DNA from: Hyphomonadaceae bacterium BRH_c29
GTDB taxonomy: Bacteria; Pseudomonadota; Alphaproteobacteria; Caulobacterales; Hyphomonadaceae
DNA length: 64,000 nucleotides
Assembly: GCA_000961695.1 (NCBI GenBank)
Contig: LADW01000068.1
Span: 1-64,000, forward strand
Direction: 5' to 3'
Within the stretch, counting starts at the first letter, position 1; each line of letters starts with the position of its first letter. The translations under genes and the position numbers were made by a program. Shown in pieces: positions 10,594-59,678 of the stretch. A model generated the notes under the pieces. That model was not told where the DNA came from. It ran no database searches and saw only the letters and a program-made list of their open reading frames with translations.

Positions 10594-10657
10594 CGCCGCG
10601 TCACCGCTCGCGCCTGCCCGGCCTTCACGATAGAGTCCGCCGTACAGGAGGATCGTC

Positions 10658-42100: not shown

Positions 42101-43169
42101 CAGTTTCGAACACCCCCCATCGGCCTGGCCGGTACAAGACCATCTTCGCGTCGAGGGCTTCACCTATAAGTCAACCGCGCAACTCGGCCCACTCGTGCCT
42201 GCCAGGAGGATACTGCTCGACATGGTCGCCGACCGGTCAAGAAACAGCTTTAACCTCAGCATTTGGGCCTTCTTGGCGGCCATCCTGTCTTTTGTCGCAC
42301 TTCTCAACTTGGATTGGTTGGAGCAGCTCATGCAGGCTGCCGGGCCTGTGAACAGTTTCTTGGTTGTCGTGACGTTCCTGCCCTGGTTCGCGCTCCTGCT
42401 CGTGAGCAGCGTCACGCAACCACCGGCCAACAGGTCTGTGATCCGCGCAACCGATTGGCTCATGCTCCAGCGTAGGAGGCTTAACACTGGCCGGCAGAAC
42501 GCCACGCTCTATCCGTTCCAACCCTTCATACACGCGGCCGAATCCCTTCGGGTGGCCGGTCGTATCCGCGCGGCCAATACTGTAGAATTGGAGCGCCTTC
42601 GCCTTCGCCGGAAAATGCTATCCCGGCGACGTGACTTGCCCTTGATCGCCGCGCTCAAGGCTGCCGACCTTGCCATGGAGTACGGCTACCGGCCGATGAG
42701 GTTGGTCATGCTGTTGTGGATCTTGGTCATTTTCGGCTCGCTGGTCGCGACAACGGCTGGAAAACGGGGAGGCGTCTCGAGGCAACTGCCCGCCTGTGTC
42801 AGCATGGGCCCAGCGCATGTGTTCAAGGCAGCCCCTCCTTGCGAGAATACGGATTTTGTTGTCGCAGCGCCGGAGTTCAGCCCCTTCTTGTATTCCATCG
42901 ATGCATCGCTGCCCTTGGTTGACCTCGGGCAAGAAAAACACTGGACGGTTACGACGAACGGCTTGGCGCCCGTAAAGGGCGACATCTTGGAATGGATGGG
43001 CCAGGCGGCCCTTGGCCGTTGGCTCCTTGCAAGGCTCACCCCCATTTGGCAATGGTTCGGGCCTTGGTACTTTGGCCTTGCCCGCCTCGTCGGGTGGGCA
43101 CTGACTGCCATTGTCTCTGTCGCGATCGTGGCGCGCCTCGAAGCCTTGATTGCCCGCAACGAAGCATAG
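39141..43169 (+). CDS. Large beta-helix-like protein with C-terminal membrane domain
   Basis: A 1342-residue protein I cannot name by function. Blocks of short, regularly spaced repeats recur at about 135-290, 430-470 and 700-830 (IEGDLDLSKLDLPFSVRLVG, GALRIRRTVLGGPLDLGGAT, GLNLRSTNIGGAFFLDDA, VAGNLDLRNTVGFCNIDAKQ). This is a quasi-pentapeptide pattern typical of right-handed beta-helices. The last 300 residues carry about four membrane helices (FLAAILSFVALLNL, SFLVVVTFLPWFALLLV, LVMLLWILVIFGSLVA, LVGWALTAIVSVAIVARL). Between the last two is FLYSIDASLPLVDLGQEKHW, a motif I associate with uncharacterised membrane proteins. There is no signal peptide. It sits beside a truncated IS3 element and uses AGG, TTG and GGG codons more than the core genes, suggesting transfer. 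Confidence 0.7.
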   Translation: MLDQHTLEDAIRTGTKLSGAKYLVPGIAPPAWYHDPHDPASPPGNGDSSLPPFLLAFFQQEGSDDAASALLGFELLSLAVRHHFLVGHGERQETMLHRKTWGTFDGKNTCKASDLANALRKVANEIASSGSLTGTPSRIPGLKLVGIRIEGDLDLSKLDLPFSVRLVGCWIDGALLMDRTKLVTLDLSGSVISFGASCNFMEAKGALRIRRTVLGGPLDLGGATIHATLDASDCIIVPKFLPPSSVAFVGDRNALNLSQARIDKEARLNRVRIYGGLNLRSTNIGGAFFLDDAIVYSPIALVELIVFEEKGLRPPSGPQVTGSAPSQATGKPGQSGPGNQDPSSEALGKQQQYAAAWNEWEACKDKEASIVWLLRGRDPAPYALEGLELERLDGLAAWRASIATPTHGNHALLKLVKEHPASAYSALRGSGCHVSGVWFARSSLFLGSVVLKSATIGDRVTMNGSWFRRHSIGKLIELSGMSTTDKALDQFLHSMQRALTEAGHVDPVDRPGLALDLRDSEINGTIDFRKDFRELQDPRRKANPWREKLIAPLVKVLLDGDSDALKAVALFNPVQEDIFKYWSRTRIVDPDGAQAQHGADPGQKELLTRAASFSESMDPGNFKYLRDIGYLELKKQSELRQSPGGPWTTWRLQIMQSLDRPPARPASYIDSPEQVALVGQLLPKLGKDTASIGRLASTIISGEMDMSGAKVGGGIRARFAIMNVSGGRQHDREFKLVNATVAGNLDLRNTVGFCNIDAKQLTLGGSVRLTEDASDDPFIGRTRPQRERASLVFLAPGSFVPRQATNNLEHKWITRHRFQGATIGGDAYMLFDDQLGPSLDFRSATIGGRLSILPALGGVELTSREYAGERTEDRKHRHFTPDPGTLPAWASWLARVAWPFPGQLRRLPLRLASALGLAISPSAQAGQHPASKPASRSMPSRYWLERMEGTLARASLEPPAPYAKPRRRDRSAPGRFPSVDLRSAASSSFEHPPSAWPVQDHLRVEGFTYKSTAQLGPLVPARRILLDMVADRSRNSFNLSIWAFLAAILSFVALLNLDWLEQLMQAAGPVNSFLVVVTFLPWFALLLVSSVTQPPANRSVIRATDWLMLQRRRLNTGRQNATLYPFQPFIHAAESLRVAGRIRAANTVELERLRLRRKMLSRRRDLPLIAALKAADLAMEYGYRPMRLVMLLWILVIFGSLVATTAGKRGGVSRQLPACVSMGPAHVFKAAPPCENTDFVVAAPEFSPFLYSIDASLPLVDLGQEKHWTVTTNGLAPVKGDILEWMGQAALGRWLLARLTPIWQWFGPWYFGLARLVGWALTAIVSVAIVARLEALIARNEA

Positions 43170-43197: not shown

Positions 43198-44226
43198 CTA
43201 GGGACACGAGGCAGGCCGCCCCTTGGCGCCGGGGCCAAGCAGGTCATAGGCATCCGCGAGGCCCAGCCCCGGCCAAGGTTTCGGCCATACGACCGGATAA
43301 TCTGCAGAAAACAGGCGGTCTCCATCTTCCAAGTCCCGCGAAACACCGACTTGCTGGATTGCGCCTGCACGGTCGAGGTAGCGGACCTCGTCCCCGCAAT
43401 AGCGGAATGAGACGGCCCGGCGCCATTGGTCGGACCGGTTTCCGCCGGCCCCATGGACGGTCTTTACATGATGGATGATGACATCGCCTGGCTGGACATC
43501 AAAAGAGACAATGTCGAAATTGCCTGGGTTCGCTTCGATGTCCGGGCAACGGTTTTCCGGCGAAGACCGGATCGGGGTCTGGGACACAAACACATTCGGC
43601 GCATAGGTCTCGCCCCATTTATGAGAGCCGCGGACATATTGCATCACACCGCTTTCCAGTGTGGCCGGGTCGAGCGGGATCCAGACGATGACACACTGAT
43701 CGCCTTCGATCTGAAAATAGGCAAGATCCTGATGGAAGGCGGTCTTCTGGCGGGTATGCGGCGCCTTCACGAAGGTCGTGTCCTCCCAGAAATTGAGATA
43801 CCGGGATCCAAGCAGGTTTGCGACGAGTCCGGGTAGCTGTGAATCGAAGGCGACTTCCCGCACGCCCCGATCGGATTTCCAGGCGGCCACGTCATAGAAG
43901 AACAGTCCGGTCTCGGACGATGCATCCTCCTCCAGCAGCGGGCGCGCAGCCTCGTCGCTGCGGACAATCTCCTTCATCATCTTCATGTCGAACCGCTCGG
44001 CTGCGCCGGTATCGACCGGGCGTTCCGGGTCCCAGACCTGACGGGCGAGTTCCTCAAAATCATAACCGGTCTTCGATGTCCTGAGGCCCTCCATCTGACG
44101 CGCAACAGCGTTCCTGAGATGGTCCAACTCCCTGCTCGTCAGGACATGTCTCAGGCAGACGACACCGTCGGTCTCGAACGCCTCGCGTGCCTCTGGCGTC
44201 AGGTGCTTCAGTCGATCCTGGATCAT
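43198..44226 (-). CDS. PhyH-family Fe(II)/2-oxoglutarate dioxygenase
   Basis: A 342-residue phytanoyl-CoA dioxygenase-like protein. The iron facial triad is His165-x-Asp167 in TAFHQDLAYF and His258 in HHVKTVHGAGG, and an Arg about 12 residues on in QWRRAVSFRY is placed to bind 2-oxoglutarate. Such enzymes hydroxylate fatty acyl or small-molecule substrates. Its ATG at 44226 overlaps the luxI stop codon (ATGA) with GGGAGG just upstream, so it is translated with the AHL synthase. A substrate related to the acyl-homoserine lactone or its acyl donor is a reasonable inference. An in-frame extension upstream only reads through luxI. Confidence 0.87.
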   Translation of the reverse strand: MIQDRLKHLTPEAREAFETDGVVCLRHVLTSRELDHLRNAVARQMEGLRTSKTGYDFEELARQVWDPERPVDTGAAERFDMKMMKEIVRSDEAARPLLEEDASSETGLFFYDVAAWKSDRGVREVAFDSQLPGLVANLLGSRYLNFWEDTTFVKAPHTRQKTAFHQDLAYFQIEGDQCVIVWIPLDPATLESGVMQYVRGSHKWGETYAPNVFVSQTPIRSSPENRCPDIEANPGNFDIVSFDVQPGDVIIHHVKTVHGAGGNRSDQWRRAVSFRYCGDEVRYLDRAGAIQQVGVSRDLEDGDRLFSADYPVVWPKPWPGLGLADAYDLLGPGAKGRPASCP

Positions 44227-44873
44227 GCGATCCTCCCGGCTGAAGCTTTGTATTTTGGCGCCATGTATTGGGCGACAATCGCTTCGGCATCGCGATAGCG
44301 ATCCATTTGGAGGTCGAGCGTTTCCTTGTCGATCTGGGAGACGGCCGGGATCCAGGCCCAATTATCGCCCTCGCGCTTTGGCAGGCCAAGCGGCTCGGTT
44401 TTCCAGACCCGCTGAACGAGGTTGTAGAACTTCTGATGTGTCAGCCAGCTGAGACGGGTAATGCCATTGTCGAGGCAGAAGACCGTCAGTCCGAGCCCCA
44501 ACCGGCAACGTATCCGAAAATCCTCCACCGGATCGGACATGAGAGACCGGTCGGTCACGAACCGCGAGCATTCCCAGACATCCCCAGCGACCGGGTAGGG
44601 CTGCAGGTCGCAATAGTCTGCAAACAGCTCACTCAGCATATGGGGACCGGTCGTCGGGTTCATGCGTGAGCTTGCGACAACCTCGCCATTGTCAGCCAGC
44701 ACGACGACGTAAATCGTCTCGTCGGTATCAAACTGATCCTTGTCATAGCCTTTCTGGATACCCGGGATGTCCCACCCCCATTCGTCCACGACAATGCGGT
44801 AGCGCATCCGGAACATCTCATCGAGCACGTCCCTATACGCCTCCCGGTTCCCGGCTGTGATGATCTTGAACAT
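44223..44873 (-). CDS. luxI: Acyl-homoserine-lactone synthase, LuxI family
   Basis: Makes an N-acyl homoserine lactone from S-adenosylmethionine and an acyl donor. The 216-residue protein has the family's conserved residues at canonical positions: Arg24 (FRMRYRIV), Trp34 (EWGWDIPG), Asp46/Asp49 (YDKDQFDTDE), Arg70 (ASSRMNP), Phe84 (SELF), and Glu101 and Arg104 (WECSRFVTD). Acyl length cannot be read from the sequence. luxR lies 76 bases upstream and phyH overlaps downstream. A 20-bp dyad about 60 bases upstream is a possible lux box. Confidence 0.93.
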   Translation of the reverse strand: MFKIITAGNREAYRDVLDEMFRMRYRIVVDEWGWDIPGIQKGYDKDQFDTDETIYVVVLADNGEVVASSRMNPTTGPHMLSELFADYCDLQPYPVAGDVWECSRFVTDRSLMSDPVEDFRIRCRLGLGLTVFCLDNGITRLSWLTHQKFYNLVQRVWKTEPLGLPKREGDNWAWIPAVSQIDKETLDLQMDRYRDAEAIVAQYMAPKYKASAGRIA

Positions 44874-44927: not shown

Positions 44928-44947
44928 ATGTCCCCTTTCGGGGACTT
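44928..44947. promoter_or_regulatory. 20-bp dyad between luxR and luxI
   Basis: ATGTCCCCTTTCGGGGACTT: perfect 6-bp arms GTCCCC/GGGGAC around TTTC, centred about 64 bases upstream of the luxI ATG and starting just after the luxR stop. Size and position suit a lux-box; it could instead be a hairpin ending the luxR transcript, but no T-run follows. Confidence 0.4.
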
Positions 44948-44949: not shown

Positions 44950-45678
44950 TCAGGGAAATATCTGGCTTTTCGCGATCGCGGTCGCCACGAGGTGAGCCCG
45001 GTTTACGGTCTGCATCTTGTCGCTGGCCCGGCGCAGCGTTTTCTTGACCGTGTCTTCCTGGATGCCGAGGATCTGGGCGATTTCCCAATTGGACTTACCG
45101 GCCGCAGCGAACTGGACGCATTGGGTTTCCCGGTGGGTCAGTTCGGCAACCTTCTGGTACGGGAAAGGCCCGAGCATGTTTTCGAGATGGTAATAGACAG
45201 TCTGGCAGACGATCTCGAGTTCAGCGATTTGTGTCTGCGAGAGACTCAACTTGTTGCCGCCTCCGAGCGACACACCGCCAGACACGCTGTGCAGGGCATG
45301 CATCGGAAACATGATGCCATCCGTGATGCCGTAATCATGCACCATGTCGACAACCATCCTGCCGGCCCGGGAAGCGTGTTCACGCGCTTCAGCCCAGCTG
45401 AAGGGCCGCTTCGATCTCAGGGCACATATGGCGATCGGATCGTGCAGGATCGCCATCTGGCTACGCCGGTGCTCTTTCAGCTCTTCCGGCCAGTCCGAGA
45501 CATAGAGGATATCCTTGATGGGAACATTTGCCGGGTTTACCAGCTGACCTAAAAAGATACGTTCGAGCCCGTATTGTTCGATGAAGCGGGACAGCTCGGA
45601 AATCGTCTCATTCGCAGTCTCAGTGACCTGAACCGCGCGGATTGCTTCAAGAACTTTGGAGCCATTATAGTCACGCAT
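44950..45678 (-). CDS. luxR: LuxR-family AHL-responsive regulator (copy 1)
   Basis: A 242-residue regulator. The N-terminal autoinducer-binding domain (about 20-160) shows the Trp of DWPEELKEH, the Asp-Pro pair of ILHDPIAI (80-81), and Trp95 of FSWAEAREH, equivalent to LuxR W57, D70/P71 and W85. The C-terminal GerE-type helix-turn-helix is LTHRETQCVQFAAAGKSNWEIAQILGIQEDTVKKTLRRASDKM. It is very similar over its whole length to the LuxR at 46714-47442. The start at 45678 (MRDYNGSK) matches the start of that paralogue. Confidence 0.92.
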   Translation of the reverse strand: MRDYNGSKVLEAIRAVQVTETANETISELSRFIEQYGLERIFLGQLVNPANVPIKDILYVSDWPEELKEHRRSQMAILHDPIAICALRSKRPFSWAEAREHASRAGRMVVDMVHDYGITDGIMFPMHALHSVSGGVSLGGGNKLSLSQTQIAELEIVCQTVYYHLENMLGPFPYQKVAELTHRETQCVQFAAAGKSNWEIAQILGIQEDTVKKTLRRASDKMQTVNRAHLVATAIAKSQIFP

Positions 45679-46022
45679 GAATAGGCTCCGCTGGAATGGC
45701 CAGAGACTAGATTCTTCATGACTAGCGCGCAATAATTTGTCTTGAATCCCGAGAATTTACCGCCTTTGGTTGAGCAAAAGGGGCCAATCAGGGGTAAATT
45801 CCGCTTTGCGCGCAATTTAAGGTTTTCAGGCAACTTCGCGGAGGGTCAACGACCAGGAGTGTCTTCGCTTACGAGCATCCCAGTCGGCCTGAAGATATGG
45901 GAGGAGAGCCACTGCACTGGCAAGCCTCCGGGCAGGCATATCCCCTGGGACCAGATGACCGGCCTTCTCATGGGGCCTGTGAAAGTCCCTGCGAAATTCG
46001 CATGTTCGCGAACCGGCCGATG
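45679..46022. other. Intergenic region between luxR copy 1 and the XRE gene
   Basis: No gene is seen. It holds the luxR promoter region and a widely spaced inverted repeat with 9-bp arms, GAATTTACC (45753-45761) and GGTAAATTC (45793-45801). A short direct repeat GCGCGCAAT flanks it. These may be regulator sites; no T-rich terminator follows the XRE stop. Confidence 0.45.
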
Positions 46023-46713: not shown

Positions 46714-47442
46714 TTAAGGAAAAATCTGGCTTTTTGCGATCGCTGTGGCAACGAGATGTGCCCGGTTCACGGCATCGAGCTTGTCGCTGGCCCGGCGCAG
46801 GGTCTTCTTGACCGTGTCTTCCTTAATCCCGAGGATCTGGGCGATTTCCCAATTAGACTTGCCGGCCGCTGCGAACTGCACGCACTCAGTTTCCCGGCAC
46901 GTGAGCTCAGCGACTATCTGGTAGGGGAATGGCCCGAGCATCGCTTCGAGGTGGTAATACACAGCCTGGCAGACGATCTCGAGCTCGGCGATATGTGTCG
47001 GTGTAAGGTCAAGTTTCTTGCTCGTGCCGAGTGAGACACCGCCACTGACACTGTGGAGAGCATGCATCGGGAACATCATGCCTTCGCGAAGGCCATAATC
47101 ATGGACCATGTCCACGACCATCCTGCCGGCCCTTGAGGCATGTTCACGGGCCTCGGCCCAACTGAACGGGCGCTTGGACCGTAGGGCGCAGATGGCGACC
47201 GGGTCATGCAGGATCGCCATTTGGTTCTGCCGGTGCGCCTTGAGCTCGTGCGGCCAGTCGGAAACATAGAGGATGTCCTTCAAGGGCACGTTGGCGGGAT
47301 TGACCAACTGGCCCAGGAAGATCCGCTCAAATCCGTACCGCCCTATAAACTCGGCCAGAATGCCGATTGCCTCCTCCACGGCTCGCGTCGCCTGGACCGA
47401 GCGGATCGCGGCAAGGACTGAAGATCCATCATAATCGCGCAT
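46714..47442 (-). CDS. luxR: LuxR-family AHL-responsive regulator (copy 2)
   Basis: A 242-residue paralogue of the regulator at 44950-45678. By eye about three quarters of residues are identical, with long identical stretches in both domains (IFLGQLVNPANVP, ILHDP, ALRSKRPFSWAEAREHASRA, CVQFAAAGKSNWEIAQILGI). Differences cluster in the first 35 residues and at DYGLREGMM versus DYGITDGIM. All autoinducer-domain Trp/Asp residues and the GerE helix-turn-helix are kept, so both copies look functional. It is divergent from the LicD-type gene at 47684 across a 241-base region. Confidence 0.92.
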   Translation of the reverse strand: MRDYDGSSVLAAIRSVQATRAVEEAIGILAEFIGRYGFERIFLGQLVNPANVPLKDILYVSDWPHELKAHRQNQMAILHDPVAICALRSKRPFSWAEAREHASRAGRMVVDMVHDYGLREGMMFPMHALHSVSGGVSLGTSKKLDLTPTHIAELEIVCQAVYYHLEAMLGPFPYQIVAELTCRETECVQFAAAGKSNWEIAQILGIKEDTVKKTLRRASDKLDAVNRAHLVATAIAKSQIFP

Positions 47443-49231: not shown

Positions 49232-49363
49232 ATGAAACAGGAAAAGCTGATCCCGGAAGAATTCGAGCCCGTTGAACTCGGTTCCGTCTCGGAAGAAACG
49301 CGCGGTTCGTTCGGACTCGCCCAGGAAAACGGCGAACTGCCGTTCACCCGGCAGATCGTCTGA
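49232..49363 (+). CDS. Lasso peptide precursor
   Basis: A 43-residue precursor, start at 49232 behind AAAAGGAGA. The leader (1-24) reads MKQEKLIPEEFEPVELGSVS then EETR, with the Thr at the penultimate leader position that lasso enzymes require. The core (25-43) is GSFGLAQENGELPFTRQIV. Gly1 and Glu8 would form the 8-residue macrolactam ring, since no other Asp or Glu is at positions 7-9, leaving an 11-residue tail that threads the ring. The maturation genes B and C follow directly. The layout resembles caulosegnin-type peptides (Gly1-Glu8 ring, 19 residues), but the core matches none I know. The calculated monoisotopic mass of the cyclised core is about 2044.04 Da. Confidence 0.92.
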   Translation: MKQEKLIPEEFEPVELGSVSEETRGSFGLAQENGELPFTRQIV

Positions 49364-49422
49364 ACCCGGACCATCGGAAGGGCGCGGCAGGGTCCGCGTC
49401 CCTCCACCTCTCGAGGCAACTC

Positions 49423-50106
49423 ATGCCTGCCGACACCCGACTTCATCCAAGCCTCTCGTATTGCTGCCATTCTGGCACGCTTGTCTTCCTGGATGCTGCC
49501 CGGGACCGCTATTTTTGCCTCAAGGACGATCAAGCAGGTTTGTTCCGTGAAATTGCCCGCACACAAGCGGGCGAGAGCCTGCCGCCCAAGGTTTCCGCCT
49601 TCCGGGACGAACTCATCCTGTCTGGGATCTTCACCAAGGCACAAGGGGCGGGCAACGTCATCGCCCCGTGCGCTCACCCAGCCCCCACCGCGTCGGTGTT
49701 TGACGCAACAACCAGGCCGCGGGCCACGCTTCGCGACACAGCGCGCTTTTTGTCAGCCTGGGCTGCCTGCGCGCCCTTCCAGCGCAACCGCAAGATCCAG
49801 TCGCTCCTCGACACGGCCCGCCAGTGGAGGGCGCCCCTTCCTCCCTGCGAAAGTCCCGATGAAGCCTGCCGCCTCGCCGGGACCTTCCATGCGCTCGCGC
49901 CCTATTTCATCACCTTGCACGATGCCTGCCTGTTCCGGAGTTACCTGCTGATCCGCTACCTTGCCAGCGCGGGCGTGGCCGCCGACTGGATTTTCGGGAT
50001 CCGGCTTTCGCCCTTCGCCGCGCATTGCTGGGTTGAACAGGACGGCCACGTCCTCAACGAGCACCTCGACACGGTCCAGGAATTCCAACCCATCCTGTGT
50101 GCCTGA
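49423..50106 (+). CDS. Lasso peptide maturation protein B (leader recognition plus protease)
   Basis: A 227-residue McjB-type protein with both parts fused. Residues 1-85 are the PqqD-like leader-recognition element (LSYCCHSGTLVFLDAARDRYFCLKDDQAGLF). Residues about 100-227 are the transglutaminase-like leader peptidase, with Cys169 in LHDACLFRSYLLIRYL and His201 in FAAHCWVEQDGHVLNEHLD. The third catalytic residue, usually Asp in VLND, appears to be Glu213. It cuts the precursor before core Gly1. The gene is 59 bases after the precursor and 11 bases before C. Confidence 0.9.
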   Translation: MPADTRLHPSLSYCCHSGTLVFLDAARDRYFCLKDDQAGLFREIARTQAGESLPPKVSAFRDELILSGIFTKAQGAGNVIAPCAHPAPTASVFDATTRPRATLRDTARFLSAWAACAPFQRNRKIQSLLDTARQWRAPLPPCESPDEACRLAGTFHALAPYFITLHDACLFRSYLLIRYLASAGVAADWIFGIRLSPFAAHCWVEQDGHVLNEHLDTVQEFQPILCA

Positions 50107-50117
50107 GGACAACGGCC

Positions 50118-51926
50118 ATGCGATCCTTCTTCGCCATGCTCTGGAACTCAGATGATCCGGATGCGGCCGAAGCCGCCCGCAGGATCCGGTCGCGCCTTCT
50201 TGTCGAGCCAGGCCATGAGGCCAGCTGCCTCGACGCTCCGGGACTTTTTCTTGCGGACCTGTCAATCGACCAGGCGACGGCATCCATCGTGCCGGTTGAA
50301 TGCCCCCAATCCCATTCTGGGTCGGCTGCAATCTTCGGGACATTCTTCAAGCCAGCGCTCTCCGGCGCGGGTATGGCACGCATCACGACGCTCGACGGGC
50401 TGGACGCCGCGCGCATGCTGGACTCAGGCGGCCGGTCGCTTCTCACCGATGGCTGGGGCAGCTATGTCGGCCTCGTCGCGTCCGGCGCCAACATGTCCAT
50501 CACCTGCGATCCCACCTCCTCCCTGCCATGCTACTACACCCAGCAAGACGGGGTCACCCTTGCCTTCTCGCACCTCGAACGCTGCCCCTTTATCGACACG
50601 CGCCAGTTCACCCTAAACCTTGGCTTCCTGGCACGCTTGCTTGCCTATGACCGGCTCCAGACCGGGGAAACAGGCTTCAATGAGGTGCGCGAGCTCCTTG
50701 GCGGCGAGGGCCTCTTCCTAACCGCTGGCACCTGTGTCACCGAACAGGTCTGGGATCCCAGGACCATCGCAGAAAGGCCATTGCGGGCGCGCCCGGAAGA
50801 GGCTGCCGAAATGCTCAGGCAAACGGCACAAGGTGTGGTCGCGAGCTGGAGCCGGCTGTTCGACCCGGTCCATGTCGACCTGTCGGGCGGGTTTGATTCC
50901 TCTGCCCTGTGCGGCCTCCTTGCCCGCGTGAACGGATCGCAAGCCACGATTGCCGTTCATCAATGCCTCCAGTCGGGCGATCCGCCGGAGGCTGGCTACG
51001 CACGCGAGGCTGCGGCCCATGCCGACATGCCATACAAGGGAATCCAGCTTGACCCGGCGCGGCCTGTCCCGCCCGCTGGCAGCCATCCCCTTTCCGCGCG
51101 TCCCCATAGACAATTTATCGGCATGGACCTTTCCGGGCCGCGCGCTGCAGCCGACCTCCCGATTGCCGATGCGACCTTTACCGGCCAAGGCGGTGACCAC
51201 CTCTTCCTCGCCGACAAGAGCCCGCTTGGCTTCTGCGATTTCCTGACACTGGAAGGCATCAATGCCCGCACCGGAGAGGAACTGCTCAATGCGGCAAGGC
51301 TCTCAGGCCGTTCGGCCTGGTCCGTTCTGGCAACCTGCTTGCCACGCCTGGTGGCGCGCAGCGGGCAAAGCGACCTAGCTCGCGCGATTGCCGCGCGCCG
51401 CGCCGGGAGCCCTGACCGTTCGATGACAGACTTACCATCCTGGATGCAGGATCCTGCAGGGCTCCCGCCGGCAAAGTTCAACCAGGCCTGCAACCTCATG
51501 CACATGGTCCAAGTGCGAGAACAGTTCGACCGTCCGTGGACACATAATGTTGTCCATCCGTTTATATCCCAGCCGCTGGTCAGCCTCTGCCTGCAAATCC
51601 CAGCCTACATGCTCACCCTGGGCGGCGAGAACCGGGGCCTCGCCCGAATGGCCTTCAAGGGCCTGCTTCCCGAAAGGATCCGGCGGCGCATGACCAAAGG
51701 GACATCGACGGGTTATTTCATGGACTACCTCTTAGCCAATCACGACACGGTCATCGGCGCCCTGCGGGGGGGCGCCTTGGAAAAGGCCGGGCTCATCCAC
51801 CCGAGCGACCTTGATACCCTGGTTTCAAAGGACTTGTACAAGCTCGCCCATACGGGCCGACGGCTGTTGGTCTGGTACACGATCGAGGCGTGGTTGCGGG
51901 CCTGGAACCAGCATCTCGGGCCGTAA
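50118..51926 (+). CDS. Lasso cyclase C (asparagine-synthetase-like)
   Basis: A 602-residue McjC-type enzyme that adenylates the ring Glu side chain and joins it to Gly1. The N-terminal part resembles a class II glutamine-amidotransferase domain but lacks a catalytic Cys at position 2 (MRSFFAMLW). The synthetase half has the ATP-pyrophosphatase loop VDLSGGFDSSALCGLL near residue 255 and a C-terminal MTKGTSTGYFMDYLLA segment. I start it at 50118; an in-frame start at 50097 would overlap B. No ABC exporter (D) follows. Confidence 0.92.
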   Translation: MRSFFAMLWNSDDPDAAEAARRIRSRLLVEPGHEASCLDAPGLFLADLSIDQATASIVPVECPQSHSGSAAIFGTFFKPALSGAGMARITTLDGLDAARMLDSGGRSLLTDGWGSYVGLVASGANMSITCDPTSSLPCYYTQQDGVTLAFSHLERCPFIDTRQFTLNLGFLARLLAYDRLQTGETGFNEVRELLGGEGLFLTAGTCVTEQVWDPRTIAERPLRARPEEAAEMLRQTAQGVVASWSRLFDPVHVDLSGGFDSSALCGLLARVNGSQATIAVHQCLQSGDPPEAGYAREAAAHADMPYKGIQLDPARPVPPAGSHPLSARPHRQFIGMDLSGPRAAADLPIADATFTGQGGDHLFLADKSPLGFCDFLTLEGINARTGEELLNAARLSGRSAWSVLATCLPRLVARSGQSDLARAIAARRAGSPDRSMTDLPSWMQDPAGLPPAKFNQACNLMHMVQVREQFDRPWTHNVVHPFISQPLVSLCLQIPAYMLTLGGENRGLARMAFKGLLPERIRRRMTKGTSTGYFMDYLLANHDTVIGALRGGALEKAGLIHPSDLDTLVSKDLYKLAHTGRRLLVWYTIEAWLRAWNQHLGP

Positions 51927-52187
51927 TCCGGGAGCGGTTCGCCCGCTCCGCCGCCCCCTGTTTGCAGGAATGGTGGCATTCGCTGCGCCCAAGCATAGTC
52001 GAATATTCCAAAATGTTCTTATTCAACCCCGCAATCGACAGCCAAGATATATTCATATTTCCAATGAATACTGGTCGTTAGGATTATACGGGGCGGTATT
52101 TTTTTAAGTGAAGTGCATGAATTTTCAATAAGATATGTTGCAGAATGTGGAACATCATCCCTACATTGGCGGCGAAGGAAATCTCAG
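51927..52187. other. AT-rich gap between the cyclase and abiEi genes
   Basis: No gene is seen. It contains a 7-bp-arm inverted repeat TATTCAT/ATGAATA (52050-52070, 7-base loop) and a T7 run at 52099-52105. AbiEi antitoxins bind inverted repeats in their own promoters, so the repeat may be such a site. The base composition is clearly more AT-rich than the flanks. Confidence 0.4.
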
Positions 52188-52778
52188 ATGACCGCGCTCA
52201 ACGCCCTGAAAAAAAGACTGCGTCCGGGACAGGTGTACCGGCGCAAGGAGCTTGCCCGCTGGTCGAATGCGGTCGACCGCCATCTGCGTCTGCTGCTCGA
52301 AGAAGGCCGCCTAGAGAAAGTCGGCCCCGGTCTTTACATGGCGCCACGGAAGACCCGCTTCGGTTCCGCGCCTGCGCGGCCGGAAAAACTGGTTGAGAGC
52401 TTTCTCGGGGACGACCGCTTCCTGCTGGTCTTGCCGAACGCTTATAACAGTCTCGGGCTCGGCACGACGCAACTCTATAACGAGCCGGTGGTCTACAACC
52501 GAAAACGCCATGGACGCTTCGAACTGGATGGACGTCCTTATGATTTCCGGATGCGGGGATCTGTGCCGTCCGGTCTCAGCGAGGAATTCCTGCTTGTGGA
52601 CCTGCTGCACAATCTCGACCGGCTGCCGGAGGACAAAGCAGCCGTCCTGCCGAAGGCGCTAAAGCGCGCAGGAGGCATGGATCGGACGCGTCTTGTACGC
52701 GCGGTCCGGGATTACGGTTCAGCGCGGGCAAGACGGCTGCTTGAACCTGTCCTGGCCGAACCGCTTGCGGCTGCGTGA
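52188..52778 (+). CDS. abiEi: AbiEi-type antitoxin
   Basis: A 196-residue type IV antitoxin/transcription repressor of the AbiEi family. The N-terminal winged helix is LKKRLRPGQVYRRKELARWSNAVDRHLRLLLEEGRLEKVGPGLYMAP. The C-terminal domain includes FLLVLPNAYNSLGLGTTQLYNEPVVYNRKRHG. In the intact system it represses its operon and counters AbiEii. The start at 52188 follows GAAGGAA. Its stop overlaps the abiEii remnant (TGATG). The toxin is broken, so this antitoxin is probably an orphan. Confidence 0.83.
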   Translation: MTALNALKKRLRPGQVYRRKELARWSNAVDRHLRLLLEEGRLEKVGPGLYMAPRKTRFGSAPARPEKLVESFLGDDRFLLVLPNAYNSLGLGTTQLYNEPVVYNRKRHGRFELDGRPYDFRMRGSVPSGLSEEFLLVDLLHNLDRLPEDKAAVLPKALKRAGGMDRTRLVRAVRDYGSARARRLLEPVLAEPLAAA

Positions 52779-52915
52779 TGCTGTTGCATGAGCTGCCCGA
52801 CTTCAATGACCTCATCGCCGTCGCGGCGAGACGCGAAGGCATCGATCCAGGCCTTGTGGAAAAGGACGACTGGATCATGCACTGCCTTTTGGGGCCTGCA
52901 GCAGCAGTGTCGCAG
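52778..52915 (+). pseudogene. abiEii: AbiEii nucleotidyltransferase toxin, N-terminal remnant
   Basis: The frame starts MLLHELPDFNDLIAVAARRE and continues GIDPGLVEKDDWIMHCL, the typical AbiEii N-terminus (usually VEKDYWI). A one-base slip in the T-run near 52890 shifts the expected continuation (WGLQQQ) into the next frame, which then ends at a stop near 52970. The nucleotidyltransferase core (GGTSLSK, D-x-D) is absent, and the isopeptidase gene starts its 3' end at 53001. The toxin is frameshifted and truncated. Confidence 0.75.
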
Positions 52916-53000
52916 CCGTGTGCCGGAGATGGACCTCCAAGGCGCCCAGCGCGGTCTGGCTTGTTTTTAGTCCGCTCCTGCAGCGGCCATGTCCTTCCAG

Positions 53001-55640
53001 CTATCCTTTCCCATCGTCCCGCAGGATACCGGACTCCAGGAGTAATCGGTCCATCCGGTTCCATATGTCCCGGATATTGGCCGGGCTGGAAGGACCATGT
53101 CCTTCGCCCCAATAGCGGACATAACGGGCTTCCTTGCCCGCCCGGCAGAGGGCCCCGAACATTTCGTCGAATTGAGTCATGCCGATATAGTCCATGTCCG
53201 AATGGACAAGCAGGACCGGGATCTCAATATCCGGGGCAAGGATGACGGGACTCGTCGCCGCATAGGCAGATGGGTCCTCGAATGGTGTTTCGCCGAACCC
53301 GAACGGGCACCGGTTCTGGGCGCCCTCGCCGACACAGTCATAACGCCAGCGATTGTCGCCGCCATTCTGGTCAAGATGCAGGTAGGTGGCGATGCCGCGC
53401 GCTCCAAAATAGTGGCTGATATAGTCCGCCCACCCATTTATGGCGATCACCGCCGCAAACCGGTCAGACTTTGCAGCGATGTATAATGCTGCCACCGCGC
53501 CCTGGCTGACGCCGAGCAGGACGATCCGGTCCGGGTCGGCATAGCCCTGCTCGACGAGTGCCTTTGCTGCCTGTTCGACGAGGTCCGGCATCCCGCCGAT
53601 CGGTGCCTCGGCCGTCCGGGCAAAATCGAGCTGCATGGCCGGGCGAAAATAGATGGCCCCCCGGCTTGTCCAGAGATCGGAGGCGAACGCTTCCGGCCGT
53701 GGCATGTCCCGTACATGGGTGCAACGCCCCGGGAGCCCGATCGGATAGATGTCCAGGACGACCGGGTATCGCTGGCCGGGCCGGTAATCCGGCGGCAAGC
53801 TCAGGCAGCCTTCCACTGTCCTGTCGGGTTGGTCCCCCTTAGGATCCGAGAGCGTGTAGTGCAGGCTTGTTTCCGGGACCGACAGGGTCTGGTCCAGGCC
53901 GCCATTAATGCGCGCAAACAGCTGGGATTGACGGCCCTCCCGAAGCAGGACGAGCTCTGTCGCGCTTCCTGCTCGCCGCGTCACTAGCGCTGCGGAGGCG
54001 GATGCCGAGGCGGCGAGCAGGCGGGCATCTGTGAGATCGATATCGACCTTTCCGGTTTCCCGGCTCCCCCAACTGGGGCCAATGAACCGGACGGCGCGGT
54101 CGGCGCCATCCGCGCTGCGCACAAGGACCGAGCGCGCGGCTGGGTCTGTCGGTGTACGCCTTTCCTGTGAGCTGAACCGGAACTCCCCCGACCAGCTATG
54201 TGCCGGGACAATTTCGTAGGGCGGAGCGTAGGCCCCCTCCTCTAATGCGGGTGTCAGGCGCCGGGACTTCCCGTCAGATCCCGTGCGGAAAACCCCATCC
54301 GGGGAAAGCACTGTGAGGTGATTTTCATCCGCGCCGAGCAATTGCGGGGAGACCGCCTTGAGGCCGCTCGTGAGGCGTTTCGGTCCTTCTTCCAACAGCG
54401 CATACCAACCATAGGATCCGCCCGAAGCCGACCGGGCATAAACGACCGGACCGTCATCCAGAAGTGCCCCCGCAACCGGGCCAGAAAAGCCTGCCGGGTC
54501 CGGGGTCAGGTTCCGGTCGGCAAGCTGCAGGCCGTCATGCGCAGCGAGGACAGGCTTCAGCGTCGCGGCATCAAACACGTAATAGTCGCCATCCGCCACC
54601 GTCTTGCCTTTTGCCCAGCCGAAGACGGAAACCCGGTCTCTCCTTGCTGACCAAGTAATCGAACCGGGATCCACCGTATACGGCACCGCCGCGTCCCGCG
54701 CTTCGCCGCTGTCCCGGTCAATGACACGGAACGCATACCGGCGGTCGAACCTTGGATGCGTGAGCGCGGTTTCGAGCGGCACGTCGGCGGGAGGACGGAC
54801 CCGCTCCCCAACGCGGGCGGCGGCAACATATTGACCGTCCGGGGAGGCTTTCGGGGCGGCATGGCGCCCAGCTGCGACGGGCCGCGCCGTGCCCGCCGCA
54901 AGATCAAACGCCATGAGCGTGCCCTCAGCCCAGTCCTCCGACCGGTCACGCCCCGTACTGGACATTTCAGAGGCGGTCGTCTCCTTCCCTCGCCAGGCTG
55001 CATTCCAGTCCTGCCAGAGCATCTGACCGATAAGACCGCGAGCATGACGCTCTGAACCTGGAAGGTCATCCGGCCGCACCGGCATCAGGAACGCATGCTC
55101 GGACACCCACTCGATCCGCTCATTCCAGCTGAACAGGGTGAAATAGCCATCCCGGAAATCCGGCTCTCCGTCGAACCGGACGCAGTCGTTCTTTCCAAGC
55201 TGGCACCCGACGAAGCGGAGACGCCCGGCCTTGTGCTCGAGCACCAGAACCCAGCGGCTGTCAGGGGAAATGCCCGCCAGGTAATTCGTTGCGTCGATAT
55301 CAAGGCCGGGCTGGAGGCGCGGCGGCCCGTCCGCTGCGACCTCCTTGACCCAGAGCTGGTGACCGGAGAGGCCATAAGCATAGAGCCAGTAGGAATAGTC
55401 CCCAAGATGGTCATAAGGCGGGGTGACATTGTAGGCGAGCCATTTGCCATCCGGGCTGAACTGCGCTTGCCCATAGACGGCAAGGCCTAGCACGTCCTCG
55501 ACGCTTATCTTGTGTTGCGCCAGCCCCTCGGGCGCTGCACCGGCCGACGCCAGGCCCACCAGGCCTAACGCCCCCGCAAGGACGGCCGCGATCATGACCC
55601 GCCAAGCTTGCACCAGGCACGATCCTGTTTCCCGGCCCAT
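53001..55640 (-). CDS. Lasso peptide isopeptidase (AtxE type, S9-like)
   Basis: Predicted to open the macrolactam of the imported lasso peptide. The 879-residue protein has an N-terminal signal sequence (VMIAAVLAGALGLVGLASAGAA), a seven-bladed beta-propeller region (FSPDGKWLAYNV, ASPDGQYVAAARVG and others), and a C-terminal prolyl-oligopeptidase-like alpha/beta hydrolase. The nucleophile Ser is in VLLGVSQGAVAALYIA, an Asp in LLVHSDMDYIG, and the His in RYWGEGHGPSSPANI. These features match the isopeptidases of astexin-type clusters. It begins two bases after the TonB receptor gene, as in those clusters. The signal points to a periplasmic location. Confidence 0.88.
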   Translation of the reverse strand: MGRETGSCLVQAWRVMIAAVLAGALGLVGLASAGAAPEGLAQHKISVEDVLGLAVYGQAQFSPDGKWLAYNVTPPYDHLGDYSYWLYAYGLSGHQLWVKEVAADGPPRLQPGLDIDATNYLAGISPDSRWVLVLEHKAGRLRFVGCQLGKNDCVRFDGEPDFRDGYFTLFSWNERIEWVSEHAFLMPVRPDDLPGSERHARGLIGQMLWQDWNAAWRGKETTASEMSSTGRDRSEDWAEGTLMAFDLAAGTARPVAAGRHAAPKASPDGQYVAAARVGERVRPPADVPLETALTHPRFDRRYAFRVIDRDSGEARDAAVPYTVDPGSITWSARRDRVSVFGWAKGKTVADGDYYVFDAATLKPVLAAHDGLQLADRNLTPDPAGFSGPVAGALLDDGPVVYARSASGGSYGWYALLEEGPKRLTSGLKAVSPQLLGADENHLTVLSPDGVFRTGSDGKSRRLTPALEEGAYAPPYEIVPAHSWSGEFRFSSQERRTPTDPAARSVLVRSADGADRAVRFIGPSWGSRETGKVDIDLTDARLLAASASASAALVTRRAGSATELVLLREGRQSQLFARINGGLDQTLSVPETSLHYTLSDPKGDQPDRTVEGCLSLPPDYRPGQRYPVVLDIYPIGLPGRCTHVRDMPRPEAFASDLWTSRGAIYFRPAMQLDFARTAEAPIGGMPDLVEQAAKALVEQGYADPDRIVLLGVSQGAVAALYIAAKSDRFAAVIAINGWADYISHYFGARGIATYLHLDQNGGDNRWRYDCVGEGAQNRCPFGFGETPFEDPSAYAATSPVILAPDIEIPVLLVHSDMDYIGMTQFDEMFGALCRAGKEARYVRYWGEGHGPSSPANIRDIWNRMDRLLLESGILRDDGKG

Positions 55641-55642
55641 GG

Positions 55643-58408
55643 TCAGAACGCCTTGCGAAGCTCAACGGCGACGAACCGCCCGACCGGCGAAGCATTCGCC
55701 GGATCGTAGCCCGAGACCAGGTTGGCGCCGAGGGTCGGGGTCGCCGGTGGGGCCTTGTCGAACAGGTTTGTGACCGAGAGCGTGGTTTGCACGCCTTTCA
55801 GCCAGGAGTGCCCGGATGGATCGAACGCATAGGAAAAGGTTGCGTCCGCTGTCGTCCAGGATGAAATCGGCTCGGAGGCTGCGGTCGTATCCGTGCGGTA
55901 GCTGCCTGTATGGTTGACGAACAGGTTCCCGGTAAAGCCGCCCCGGGCAAAGCCGGCGCTGGCCCGCAATTTCAAGCTGGCCGGGTTCAGGAATGTGTCC
56001 AGCACACTGACTTCGGGCGTCGTGGACGATGCTTGACGGGTAAAGTCCAGGATCTTGTTGGCATTCACCCCTGCCGTCCAACGGCCTGCGTCTGTCTCGA
56101 CGGAATAGTCGAGCTGGAAGTCGATCCCCCGCGTCTTGGTCGAGGCAAGATTGCGGACAAGGTTCACCTTGTTGATGATGCCGACATTTTCCAGCGACCC
56201 GCCAAGGTACAGGATCGGCGCCTGCGACAGCGAGGCGGCCGTCTCGGCGACCTCGTCCGCATCCGGAAAAAAGACGATTGTCCCGTCCGGGAAGGCGGAT
56301 GAATCGGCCCAGGCTATATTTGGGGCGACATACCAGCTGGTGCCGCCCGGCACGGGTGACTGGCCAAGGCGCCCATCGAAGGAGATGTCGTAAAAGGTCG
56401 AATGCACAGCCCAGTCATGGGGTCCGCGCGACAGAGAGTAATCCAGCCCCGCTGTGAAGGTCCGCGATTCTTCTGGCTGCAGGTTCTCTCCCGTCCCCGA
56501 CACAAACATCATATCGACATCAAGCGAAGGGTCCGGCAAGGCGACACCATAGGCGGCTGCCATGTAGGCATACGGCACCACGATCGCGCCGCGGTCGAGC
56601 GCACCAACATAGCCCAGAGCCGGCGGGGCGAACGAGGTACTGTAGGAACTCCGGAGATTGAGATCGGAAACAGGCGACCACAGCAAGCCCACCTTCGGAT
56701 TGGAGGACGTTCCAAAATCGGAATAATCGTCCAATCGCCCCGACAGGCTGAGTTCGAACCGCTCGATCCCGGGCACGGCATTGCCCGCCCCCACAACCGG
56801 CACAAGGAGTTCGGCATAGGCCGACGCGACCCGCCGATTCCCGTCCCTCGTGGGCGCAGATCCTGCAACCCGGCTTTCGAGGCCCTCCTCGCGGTAATGA
56901 GCGCCAAAGGCAACACTCAGCTCGCCGCCCGGTAGGCGAGCCAGCGTCCCATTGGTGAGCAGGTCAAGGGACCAGACATCCGAATTTGTTCGGACCTCAT
57001 AGGAAGTTCCAGACGCGCCGGTTAGAGGGGCCTGCAGGAAATCCTGATCATTGCGGATCTCGCTATAGGCGCCTTTCAAGCGCACTGACCAGTTTGTCGA
57101 CAGATCATAGGCGAGATCGCCCGCAAGTGACAGAGTGTCCGATTTCGACCCGGACGTCTGAAGGAGGCTTGTCGCCCCAGCCAGAATCGCTGTGCTCTCG
57201 GCTTTACGGCTAGAATAGAGCCCGGAACCGGAGAGTTTCAGTCCGGGCGCGAGATCCTGACTGAAGGCAAGGAGTGCGCTATCGCGTCTCTGGCCCGGAA
57301 GCAGGTCGAACCTGTCCCGATCGGAGATCGCAACCCCGCTGTTGAGCGTCGGCGCGGCAATGTCCGGCCGGTCGGCGAGGGTCAGGTTCCCCCGGTCGAA
57401 ATATTCATACGTAGCGAGAATGCTCCCACTGTCCCATGCCGTGCCAAGTGTCTGGCTCGCGCGCGTCTCTGCAAGGCCGCCATCCGTGACGCGGCCATAA
57501 TGGAGCATGGTTTCGGCGCCGTCGAAATCTTCGCGCAGAACGAAGTTGATGACGCCTGCGACAGCATCGCCACCATAGATGGCCGATGCCCCGTCAGTCA
57601 GGACATCCACACGCTCAAGGGCCGAGACCGGGATCATGGAAAGGTCGACGAAATCGCCAACTGTGGACGTTGGCGCGACCCGGTTTCCATTCAGAAGCAC
57701 GAGTGTCCCGCCGGATCCGAGCCCCCTCAGGTTTCCGCCCGTGCCAAGCGTATTGTTCTTCGCAGAACTGAAATCCTCAGGCAGCCCGCCCGGTGCGAAT
57801 TCGGTCGACCCGCCCCCGAAATTTTGCGGCAGAGACCGGATGAATTGCTCGGTCGTCGACGCTCCGGAATTCAGAATGTCCTCGCGCCCATAGATGAACA
57901 GCGGTGAACTCTCAGGTGTAATTCCCCGCAGGCTGGTGCCCGTGACGGTTATCTTTTCAGCGCGCAAAGTGTCACTGTATGCGTCTGCCGGATCCGGCTC
58001 CGGCGTTACAGGTGTCTTTTCAATCCTTTCCGGTTCAGGCGCCGGAGGTGAAGGGGCCTCAGCTTGCGTGGCTTCCTCACGAATAAGGAAGGCCTGCCCC
58101 TCACCCCGGACGGCTTTGAACCCTGTGCCTTTCAACAATTGATCAAGCGCCGTCCCGGGATCGAAACGTCCGGATACACCCTTTGTCCCGTGACCGGAGA
58201 CCCGTGCCTTGGAGAAGAGCAATGGCGCGCCCGACTGGGCCGAGAACTGCTGCAATGCGGCGTCGAGCGAAGTCGCCTCGATCTGGAATTCGACGACCTG
58301 CCCCTTTGTTGCTTCGTCTGCCTGAACCTCTGCAGCGCCTGCTGCGAAGACAACCGCCATAGCAGCCGCCCGCATCAGAATCTGGCGATCATATCTTGTC
58401 GAATTCAT
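55643..58408 (-). CDS. TonB-dependent receptor with N-terminal signalling (STN) domain
   Basis: A 921-residue outer-membrane transporter. It starts at the Met at 58408 (MNSTRYDRQILMRAAAMAVVFAAGAA, signal peptide). It then has an STN domain (LDAALQQFSAQSGAPLLFSKARVSG), which signals to FecR; a Pro/Glu-rich linker; a plug (EDILNSGASTTEQFIRSLPQNFGGG, LGSGGTLVLLNGNRVAP); and a 22-strand-type barrel ending in VAVELRKAF with the expected C-terminal aromatic. With the adjacent isopeptidase it probably imports the lasso peptide. FecR and FecI lie upstream on the same strand. Confidence 0.9.
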   Translation of the reverse strand: MNSTRYDRQILMRAAAMAVVFAAGAAEVQADEATKGQVVEFQIEATSLDAALQQFSAQSGAPLLFSKARVSGHGTKGVSGRFDPGTALDQLLKGTGFKAVRGEGQAFLIREEATQAEAPSPPAPEPERIEKTPVTPEPDPADAYSDTLRAEKITVTGTSLRGITPESSPLFIYGREDILNSGASTTEQFIRSLPQNFGGGSTEFAPGGLPEDFSSAKNNTLGTGGNLRGLGSGGTLVLLNGNRVAPTSTVGDFVDLSMIPVSALERVDVLTDGASAIYGGDAVAGVINFVLREDFDGAETMLHYGRVTDGGLAETRASQTLGTAWDSGSILATYEYFDRGNLTLADRPDIAAPTLNSGVAISDRDRFDLLPGQRRDSALLAFSQDLAPGLKLSGSGLYSSRKAESTAILAGATSLLQTSGSKSDTLSLAGDLAYDLSTNWSVRLKGAYSEIRNDQDFLQAPLTGASGTSYEVRTNSDVWSLDLLTNGTLARLPGGELSVAFGAHYREEGLESRVAGSAPTRDGNRRVASAYAELLVPVVGAGNAVPGIERFELSLSGRLDDYSDFGTSSNPKVGLLWSPVSDLNLRSSYSTSFAPPALGYVGALDRGAIVVPYAYMAAAYGVALPDPSLDVDMMFVSGTGENLQPEESRTFTAGLDYSLSRGPHDWAVHSTFYDISFDGRLGQSPVPGGTSWYVAPNIAWADSSAFPDGTIVFFPDADEVAETAASLSQAPILYLGGSLENVGIINKVNLVRNLASTKTRGIDFQLDYSVETDAGRWTAGVNANKILDFTRQASSTTPEVSVLDTFLNPASLKLRASAGFARGGFTGNLFVNHTGSYRTDTTAASEPISSWTTADATFSYAFDPSGHSWLKGVQTTLSVTNLFDKAPPATPTLGANLVSGYDPANASPVGRFVAVELRKAF

Positions 58409-58634
58409 GCTTGTTCCCCCTGCCGAACAGATTGGTGAGGACACGCGAACGATTTCAGCGCGTCTGTTCCCACCAACGAGCGCTTTTGGATTACTGGCAG
58501 AGAAATATCTGGCCGCAGGAAATTGGATCATCCGGGCGACAAATTTTCCTGGCGCTCGCGGCCTGGCACTTCATCCCGGAACGGATGTTCTGGAAAGCCC
58601 GGCCGAACGCTTTGATCAGAAAAGGTGTGCCGGC

Positions 58635-59669: not shown

Positions 59670-59678
59670 GGTTCAAGC

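What the first reader, a model, noticed from the sequence alone, without database searches (positions are those of the whole stretch)
49232..51926. Complete lasso-peptide biosynthesis genes with an apparently undescribed 19-residue core
The precursor at 49232-49363 has the penultimate leader Thr, and its core GSFGLAQENGELPFTRQIV has Gly1 and a single suitable ring acid, Glu8. B (leader recognition plus Cys protease) and C (asparagine-synthetase-like cyclase) follow in order. The 8-residue ring and 19-residue length resemble caulosegnin-type peptides, but I know no described peptide with this core. The calculated mass of the cyclised core is 2044.04 Da monoisotopic ([M+H]+ about 2045.05).
Basis: partly seen in the sequence, partly recalled or inferred. 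Interest (0 to 1): 0.9.

Follow-up and report, generated by a model that had tools for sequence, protein, structure and literature searches.

The report
Quorum-linked lasso peptide cluster, Hyphomonas
A bacterium of the genus Hyphomonas carries genes for a knotted "lasso" peptide, and in its relatives these genes almost always travel with a predicted peptide-decorating enzyme and often with a cell-to-cell signalling system, a combination I did not find described.

Summary
In detail: precursor 49232-49363, B 49423-50106 and C 50118-51926 form a lasso-peptide operon with core GSFGLAQENGELPFTRQIV, cyclised mass 2044.04 Da. The cluster runs on into a convergent S9 peptidase, TonB receptor, FecR and sigma factor (53001-60353), the architecture of known isopeptidase-type alphaproteobacterial clusters. 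Upstream lies a TPR-LicD protein; divergent from it, LuxR/LuxI and a PhyH dioxygenase. In 105 family genomes, TPR-LicD accompanies the cyclase in 20 of 20 Hyphomonas/Henriciella carriers (not in 3 remoter ones). In the genus (42 genomes) LuxI occurs in 16 of 18 carriers and 0 of 24 others. All 26 distinct cores of this clade, the window's included, have ring acid Glu8 and a Ser/Thr-Arg/Lys/Gln dipeptide (25 with Arg/Lys; 3 of 30 cores picked from distant clusters). By sequence profile the LicD domain's only credible solved relative is fukutin-related protein, a phospho-alcohol transferase. I propose that TPR-LicD decorates Thr15 and that production is tied to AHL signalling; both are inferences. 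If so, the mature mass is not 2045.05. The core alone is an ordinary new member; the linked module is a new variant of a known kind, not described in the searches made.

The parts
43198..44268 (-). PhyH-type dioxygenase (phytanoyl-CoA dioxygenase family), end of the luxR-luxI-phyH group; start uncertain
   Evidence: Pfam PhyH 115 bits; 16 of 42 genus genomes at E<=1e-60, 15 of them cyclase carriers
44223..44873 (-). LuxI acyl-homoserine-lactone synthase
   Evidence: Pfam Autoind_synth 91.4 bits, cut-off 24; at E<=1e-40 in 16 of 18 cyclase-carrying and 0 of 24 other genus genomes
44930..44945 (.). perfect inverted repeat GTCCCC-N4-GGGGAC between luxR and luxI: candidate lux box or transcript hairpin
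   Evidence: the only site without mismatch in the window; a copy with 0-2 mismatches at the same place in all 16 relatives' luxR-luxI gaps read
44950..45687 (-). LuxR-type regulator, copy beside luxI
   Evidence: Autoind_bind 74.3 and GerE 57.7 bits
46023..46421 (-). XRE-type helix-turn-helix regulator between the two luxR copies
   Evidence: Pfam HTH_3 39.4 bits; a relative somewhere in 13 of 24 loci
46714..47442 (-). second LuxR-type regulator, divergent from TPR-LicD; 199 identities in 245 aligned columns with the first copy
   Evidence: Autoind_bind 79.5 bits; pairwise identity
47684..49096 (+). TPR-LicD protein: N-terminal TPR repeats, C-terminal LicD/FKRP-like phosphotransferase domain; proposed tailoring enzyme; start uncertain (ORF open from 47441)
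   Evidence: LicD domain 24.1 bits, cut-off 22.6; fukutin-related protein the best PDB hit, E 7.8e-6; invariant GTxLGxxR and DRDxDxG; model pLDDT 89.2
49232..49363 (+). precursor A: leader 49232-49303, core 49304-49360
   Evidence: translation; Glu8 and Ser/Thr-Arg/Lys conserved
49423..50106 (+). B: leader-binding domain (inferred from position) plus cysteine protease, fused
   Evidence: NCBIfam lasso_biosyn_B2 68.7 bits over residues 103-225; Transglut_core3 64.6 bits
50118..51926 (+). C: asparagine-synthetase-like macrolactam cyclase
   Evidence: Asn_synthase 72 bits; homologues in 23 of 105 family genomes, own included
53001..55640 (-). E: S9 peptidase with secretion-type N-terminus, candidate lasso isopeptidase (divergent)
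   Evidence: NF033523 50 bits, cut-off 400; S9 fold; Ser712, Asp815, Asp817, His848 invariant; convergent with C in 22 of 24 loci
55643..58408 (-). TonB-dependent receptor with STN signalling domain; start uncertain
   Evidence: TonB_dep_Rec 116, Plug 48.8, STN 31.4 bits
58635..59669 (-). FecR-type anti-sigma factor
   Evidence: Pfam FecR 77.1 bits
59679..60353 (-). FecI/ECF-type sigma factor; start uncertain
   Evidence: TIGR02937 84.8 bits, cut-off 42.9

Best explanation
This is a complete isopeptidase-type lasso-peptide cluster of a Hyphomonas subtype. B removes the leader after Thr-Arg and C closes Gly1 onto Glu8, giving an 8-residue ring with the tail threaded (inferred from the families). 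Arg16, or its Lys/Gln counterpart, probably helps hold the thread, and the neighbouring Ser/Thr15 hydroxyl is the proposed site at which the TPR-LicD enzyme attaches a phosphate-linked group, the TPR part docking the peptide or B/C (inferred). The peptide or its bound cargo is retrieved through the TonB receptor, which signals through STN-FecR-FecI, and the S9 enzyme opens the ring in the periplasm (inferred from related clusters). In most Hyphomonas carriers the cluster is tied to an adjacent AHL system, so production probably depends on cell density (inferred from linkage and co-occurrence only). Shown here: the genes, their conservation, synteny and co-occurrence. Not shown: any product, modification or regulation. 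Own odds: lasso product 0.93, E is an isopeptidase 0.7, AHL control 0.5, LicD decoration of Ser/Thr15 0.4.
For: A-B-C. Same order A-B-C then convergent E-TonB-FecR-sigma in the annotated Caulobacter FWC26 cluster and in review passages (PMC9266682). TPR-LicD upstream of the precursor in 23 of 24 relatives' loci, the exception (L059) starting at a contig end. It is in 20 of 20 Hyphomonas/Henriciella genomes with C; the only other hit in 105 family genomes is one LicD-only match (66 bits, G003). In a class-wide draw it is in 1 of 385 genomes, the window's own, a draw with only 3 carriers of any C relative. LicD: Pfam 18 of 20 members, fukutin-related protein E 7.8e-6. Ser/Thr-Arg/Lys/Gln in 26 of 26 clade cores against 3 of 30 cores picked from distant clusters. 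LuxI 16 of 18 against 0 of 24 (Fisher p 9e-10, phylogeny not corrected). LuxI homologues also near 8 of 51 distant cyclase loci (Pfam-checked for 4 of the 8).
Against: Two of 18 carrier Hyphomonas genomes and both Henriciella carriers lack this LuxI, so AHL signalling is not essential to the module. The luxI-proximal inverted repeat has no copy at up to 2 mismatches upstream of TPR-LicD or the precursor, so direct LuxR control is unproven. The 3 family carriers of genus g10 (26-30% identical C) have no TPR-LicD, and in Luteimonas L115 TPR-LicD is present but I found no precursor. E is far from an annotated AtxE2-family enzyme (21% over 175 residues) and its model resembles general S9 peptidases at least as well. 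The Ser/Thr-Arg dipeptide may be conserved for threading, not for modification; shared ancestry of the 26 cores inflates the contrast. The LicD match is confined to about 50 residues around the catalytic motif. L042 and L043 have no E or TonB nearby; in a longer stretch of L042's contig (L090) an E relative lies about 8 kb downstream.
Confidence: 0.55

Rival explanations
1. An ordinary isopeptidase-type lasso cluster whose only product is the unmodified 2045.05 peptide; TPR-LicD acts on something else, such as an envelope glycan or lipid used for export or immunity, and LuxRI is a hitch-hiking neighbour.
For: Known isopeptidase clusters as described have no LicD gene (PMC9266682 passages). LicD relatives act on glycans and lipids (recalled; GGPL_Ptran_Mf1 28.3 bits). 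Henriciella and two Hyphomonas carriers lack LuxI. No copy of the luxI-proximal repeat at the lasso promoter.
Against: TPR-LicD goes with the cluster in 20 of 20 Hyphomonas/Henriciella carriers and was found in no non-carrier of the family at a comparable score; LuxI is confined to carriers within the genus (16 of 18 against 0 of 24).
Confidence: 0.33
2. A decayed cluster: the AbiEi insertion between C and E and the duplicated luxR mark a locus losing function, and no peptide is made.
For: AbiEi plus a truncated AbiEii lie between C and E only here among the 24 loci compared; G047 carries a second locus (L169) with A and B but no detectable C.
Against: The cluster genes in the window are open and keep their catalytic residues; the core fits the family constraints.
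Confidence: 0.07
3. The conserved Ser/Thr-Arg/Lys dipeptide is simply the threading plug, or a recognition point for E or TonB, and has nothing to do with TPR-LicD.
For: Bulky lock residues are usual in lasso peptides (PMC13352647 passage); isopeptidases recognise the loop (PMC9266682 passage); L122 has Glu8 and Ser-Arg without TPR-LicD.
Against: A plug needs one bulky residue; it does not by itself explain Ser/Thr before it in 26 of 26 cores (inference).
Confidence: 0.35

Closest known systems
Isopeptidase-type alphaproteobacterial lasso clusters (astexin, benenodin, sphingopyxin I in PMC9266682 passages; caulosegnin recalled; Caulobacter sp. FWC26 p1 as annotated example)
   Same: A-B-C followed by convergent S9 peptidase, TonB receptor, FecR, sigma factor; 8-residue ring as in benenodin-1 and caulosegnin I (PMC13352647 passages)
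   Different: TPR-LicD and, in most Hyphomonas carriers, LuxR/LuxI/PhyH stand where a GntR regulator stands in the known type; cyclase 25-30% identical to plasmid-borne relatives; E below the AtxE2 model's cut-off (50 against 400 bits)
Kinase/nucleotidyltransferase-tailored lasso peptides (paeninodin PadeK; pseudomycoidin PsmK/PsmN; PMC9266682 passages)
   Same: a phosphate-chemistry tailoring gene in the cluster and a conserved hydroxyl residue in the core
   Different: LicD/FKRP-like domain fused to TPRs rather than a kinase; no comparison with PsmN was run; the conserved Ser/Thr is internal, before Arg/Lys, not C-terminal
LicD / fukutin-related protein phosphotransferases (6kaj)
   Same: GTxLGxxR-like and DxDxDxG catalytic region
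   Different: similarity covers about 50 residues; TPR fusion; proposed substrate is a RiPP rather than a glycan

Membership tests
Lasso peptides (RiPP class) | precursor with Thr at -2 of the leader, Gly1, acid at 7-9 | tested here: met
Lasso peptides (RiPP class) | B protein: cysteine protease with Cys/His | tested here: met
   NF033537 above cut-off; Cys169 and His201 invariant
Lasso peptides (RiPP class) | leader-binding (RRE/B1) domain | tested here: inconclusive
   residues 1-102 of B match no model; assigned by position only
Lasso peptides (RiPP class) | C protein: Asn-synthetase-like cyclase | tested here: met
   PF00733 72 bits; below the cut-offs of the lasso-cyclase models
Lasso peptides (RiPP class) | threaded lariat product | not testable with these tools
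   needs MS, ion mobility or NMR of the product
Isopeptidase-type lasso clusters | A-B-C with convergent S9 peptidase, TonB receptor, FecR, FecI | tested here: met
Isopeptidase-type lasso clusters | GntR-like regulator before the precursor gene (PMC9266682 passage) | tested here: not met
   TPR-LicD occupies that place; the upstream regulators tested are LuxR and XRE types
AtxE2-type lasso isopeptidase | score above the NF033523 cut-off | tested here: not met
   50 against 400 bits
AtxE2-type lasso isopeptidase | S9 fold with Ser/Asp/His triad | tested here: met
   this is S9-general, not specific to isopeptidases
Benenodin family precursor (NF033522) | score above cut-off 33 | tested here: not met
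   22.0 bits
LicD / FKRP superfamily | Pfam LicD score above gathering cut-off | tested here: met
   domain alone 24.1 against 22.6; whole protein 21.3, below it
LicD / FKRP superfamily | structural match over the whole domain | tested here: inconclusive
   TPR proteins filled the structure-search lists; the domain was not folded alone
LuxI/LuxR quorum sensing | Autoind_synth and Autoind_bind+GerE proteins adjacent | tested here: met
LuxI/LuxR quorum sensing | AHL made and sensed; controls the neighbouring operon | not testable with these tools
   needs a bioassay and a luxI deletion

The most novel reading that the evidence does not exclude
Hyphomonas makes a quorum-controlled family of lasso peptides carrying a phosphate-linked group (choline-, ribitol- or glycerol-phosphate-like) put on a conserved Ser/Thr by a TPR-LicD transferase: a new lasso modification and a first AHL-gated lasso signalling or scavenging system.
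Probability: 0.25. Interest if true: 0.75.

Novelty: new variant of a known kind. Interest (0 to 1): 0.5.

Why it matters
The natural role of isopeptidase-type lasso peptides is open (PMC9266682 passages). A subtype physically and phylogenetically linked to AHL signalling gives a testable handle on when they are made, and a LicD-type transferase would be a tailoring chemistry not listed among the modifications in the review passages seen. It also changes what to look for by mass spectrometry: not only 2045.05.

Tried and rejected
Single-sequence cyclase scans of viral contigs and genome contigs found no relative; the genome-contig scan with alignment A1 worked. Plasmid search with the precursor: no match; PDB search with the precursor: none. 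A lux-box-like repeat shared by luxI and the lasso promoter was sought and not found; at 3 mismatches the motif is below chance in the window (27 found, 47 expected). A second precursor in the window was sought by pattern: by eye the other hits lack a lasso leader, so I judged them chance. The promoter/terminator scan is near chance. The rows shown for TPR-LicD in the structure searches were TPR-type proteins; no LicD-fold match appeared in them, which says nothing either way. For the Luteimonas locus L115, TPR-LicD nearly abuts B and I found no precursor. No background rate was computed for LuxI near distant lasso loci, and those 8 loci are not independent (L151 and L166 share three-quarters or more of their cores; L142, L149 and L162 are all Sphingomonas).

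Paper searches: lasso/isopeptidase/Sphingo/caulosegnin; core strings (0 papers); lasso with LicD/nucleotidyltransferase/tetratricopeptide; lasso with quorum sensing/homoserine lactone/LuxI/Hyphomonas; lasso with LuxR/TonB-dependent receptor/Caulobacter/Sphingomonas/autoinducer; 'lasso peptide' with 'Hyphomonas' (0 papers); LicD/phosphotransferase/fukutin/RiPP; lasso with luxI, gene cluster and quorum sensing; lasso with PhyH/phosphocholine/AHL synthase. What I saw of papers: the listings with abstract starts, and passages (term finds) of PMC9266682, PMC13352647 (0 occurrences of quorum, LuxR or nucleotidyltransferase), PMC7549694, PMC6963729 and PMC11006600 (0 of LuxR); no paper was read whole. 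None of this described a LicD gene or an adjacent luxI in a lasso cluster. The listings are capped (10-40 rows) and the library is open-licence only.

Rows dropped: in the core counts identical cores were merged (30 loci to 24 cores, window included); L098 and L172 were then added by hand; L115 has no core. The 30 distant cores are those I picked by eye as having a lasso-like leader, not a complete set. The rules required an acid at 7-9; one search repeated the search without that for 24 loci, with the same cores. Alignments A1-A5 used 18, 21, 20, 13 and 20 sequences, near-duplicates and partial copies left out. The class-wide searches scored at most 4 and 3 candidates per genome.
Full report
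What is there. The window lies in G000:C73 of a 3.7 Mb genome. Around them I find more: downstream and convergent, an S9 peptidase, a TonB receptor with STN domain, FecR and an ECF sigma factor; upstream on the same strand, a TPR-LicD protein; divergent from it LuxR, an XRE regulator, a second LuxR, LuxI and a PhyH dioxygenase.

Relatives. The cyclase occurs in 23 of 105 family genomes at E<=1e-20: 18 of 42 of genus g1 (Hyphomonas), two of g3 (Henriciella) and three of g10, the last at only 26-30% identity. I read 24 relatives' loci of g1/g3 with B and C. TPR-LicD lies upstream in 23 of 24 (L059 starts at a contig end). E is convergent in 22 of 24 (part of it in L031 and L044; none in L042 or L043, though a longer stretch of L042's contig, L090, shows an E relative about 8 kb downstream). 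LuxI is divergent in 16 of 24. The named-genome scan with the cyclase alignment kept 79 loci; besides records of the same genomes it adds Marinicaulis flavus, two alphaproteobacterial MAGs (L098/L103, L102) and Luteimonas sp. XNQY3 with TPR-LicD. The 51 more distant loci (L118-L168) have none by profile search at E<=1e-3.

Co-occurrence. TPR-LicD: 20 of 20 g1/g3 carriers, none of the 3 g10 carriers, and one LicD-only hit (66 bits, G003) among the non-carriers of the 105 genomes; 1 of 385 genomes drawn from the class, the window's own, where only 3 genomes have a C relative. LuxI at E<=1e-40: 16 of 18 carriers and 0 of 24 non-carriers in the genus, plus a 39% hit in Henriciella G029, which has no C (Fisher p 9e-10, not corrected for phylogeny). 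PhyH at E<=1e-60: 15 of 18 against 1 of 24. G047 and G054 have a second luxI-PhyH pair elsewhere.

The peptide family. The 24 distinct cores (window included), with L098 and L172, all have Gly1 and Glu8, and all have Ser/Thr followed by Arg, Lys or Gln near the C-terminus (only Gln in L102). In 30 distinct cores picked by eye from distant clusters, 3 have that dipeptide at the equivalent place and 6 have Glu8. The window's core has T15-R16. Lengths run from 16 to 21 residues. In the 13 precursors aligned the leader pattern L-G-x-x-S-x-E-T is invariant; L095 departs from it at the Glu.

The LicD domain. Residues 245-462 of the TPR-LicD reading frame used (from 47660) give Pfam LicD at 24.1 bits (cut-off 22.6) and 18 of 20 members match. 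A profile of the domain finds a single credible solved structure, fukutin-related protein (E 7.8e-6, 48 residues around the GTxLGxxR and DRDxDxG motifs; next hit E 0.41). The predicted model is good (pLDDT 89.2), but the structure-search lists were filled by TPR-type proteins. From the family (recalled: LicD moves phosphocholine, fukutin-related protein ribitol phosphate, from CDP donors to hydroxyls) I infer a phospho-alcohol transferase, and from the conserved hydroxyl I infer its site. Neither is shown.

The peptidase. E has an N-terminal helix of secretion type by my reading, the S9 fold and invariant Ser712, Asp815, Asp817 and His848. Against the annotated AtxE2-family enzyme of Caulobacter FWC26 it is 21% identical over 175 residues (profile comparison probability 92), and the isopeptidase SpI-IsoP is only 23rd by Foldseek, behind general S9 peptidases. 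Its role as isopeptidase rests on synteny.

Regulation. Reviewed isopeptidase clusters have a GntR-like regulator before the precursor (PMC9266682, passages), as in FWC26. Here that place is taken by TPR-LicD, and the nearest regulators are LuxR and XRE types. A perfect inverted repeat sits between luxR and luxI (44930-44945), present with 0-2 mismatches in all 16 relatives' luxR-luxI gaps, but not at the lasso or TPR-LicD promoters. LuxI homologues also lie within 10 kb of the cyclase in 8 of 51 distant loci (four checked by Pfam). That is suggestive of a wider functional link, but the loci are partly related to one another and no background rate was computed. The one AHL-lasso connection I met in passages is indirect, capistruin repression through ScmR in Burkholderia (PMC6963729).

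Judgement. As a lasso peptide with a new core it is an ordinary new member, of which genome mining has found many (recalled). As a conserved module of lasso genes, TPR-LicD and AHL system it is a new variant of the isopeptidase-type cluster; I found no description in the searches named under Tried and rejected.

Noticed in passing
52113-53245 (+): AbiEi antitoxin-type gene (272 bits) followed by an AbiEii fragment (about the first 40 residues, 19.7 bits) between C and the convergent peptidase; absent from this place in the 24 other loci, a 70% AbiEi relative lies elsewhere in L035.
   Followed up: partly
L124, L125, L142, L149, L151, L162, L163, L166: LuxI homologues (30-42% identical) within 10 kb of the cyclase in distant lasso loci of Sphingomonas-type and other bacteria: AHL-lasso linkage may be wider than Hyphomonas (four checked by Pfam).
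   Followed up: partly
L169 (G047:C5), 6211-11621: A second luxRI-PhyH-TPR-LicD-precursor-B locus without a detectable cyclase; its precursor core equals that of L058.
   Followed up: no
L176 (Sphingopyxis indica pMC4), 16265-17587: A PhyH-family gene and a GntR regulator beside another lasso cluster on a plasmid typed as conjugative, recalling the PhyH gene next to the Hyphomonas clusters.
   Followed up: no
L115 (Luteimonas sp. XNQY3): A Hyphomonas-type cluster in a record named as a gammaproteobacterium, with a much more distant TonB receptor (29%) and no precursor found: horizontal transfer or mis-assembly.
   Followed up: partly
39141-43169 (+): 1342-residue ORF with only a weak pentapeptide-repeat match (21.8 bits, below cut-off); function unknown.
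   Followed up: no
61526-62752 (-): HipA-type kinase (HipA_C 160 bits) just beyond the sigma factor; weaker HipA relatives lie near two other clusters, L033 and L061.
   Followed up: no
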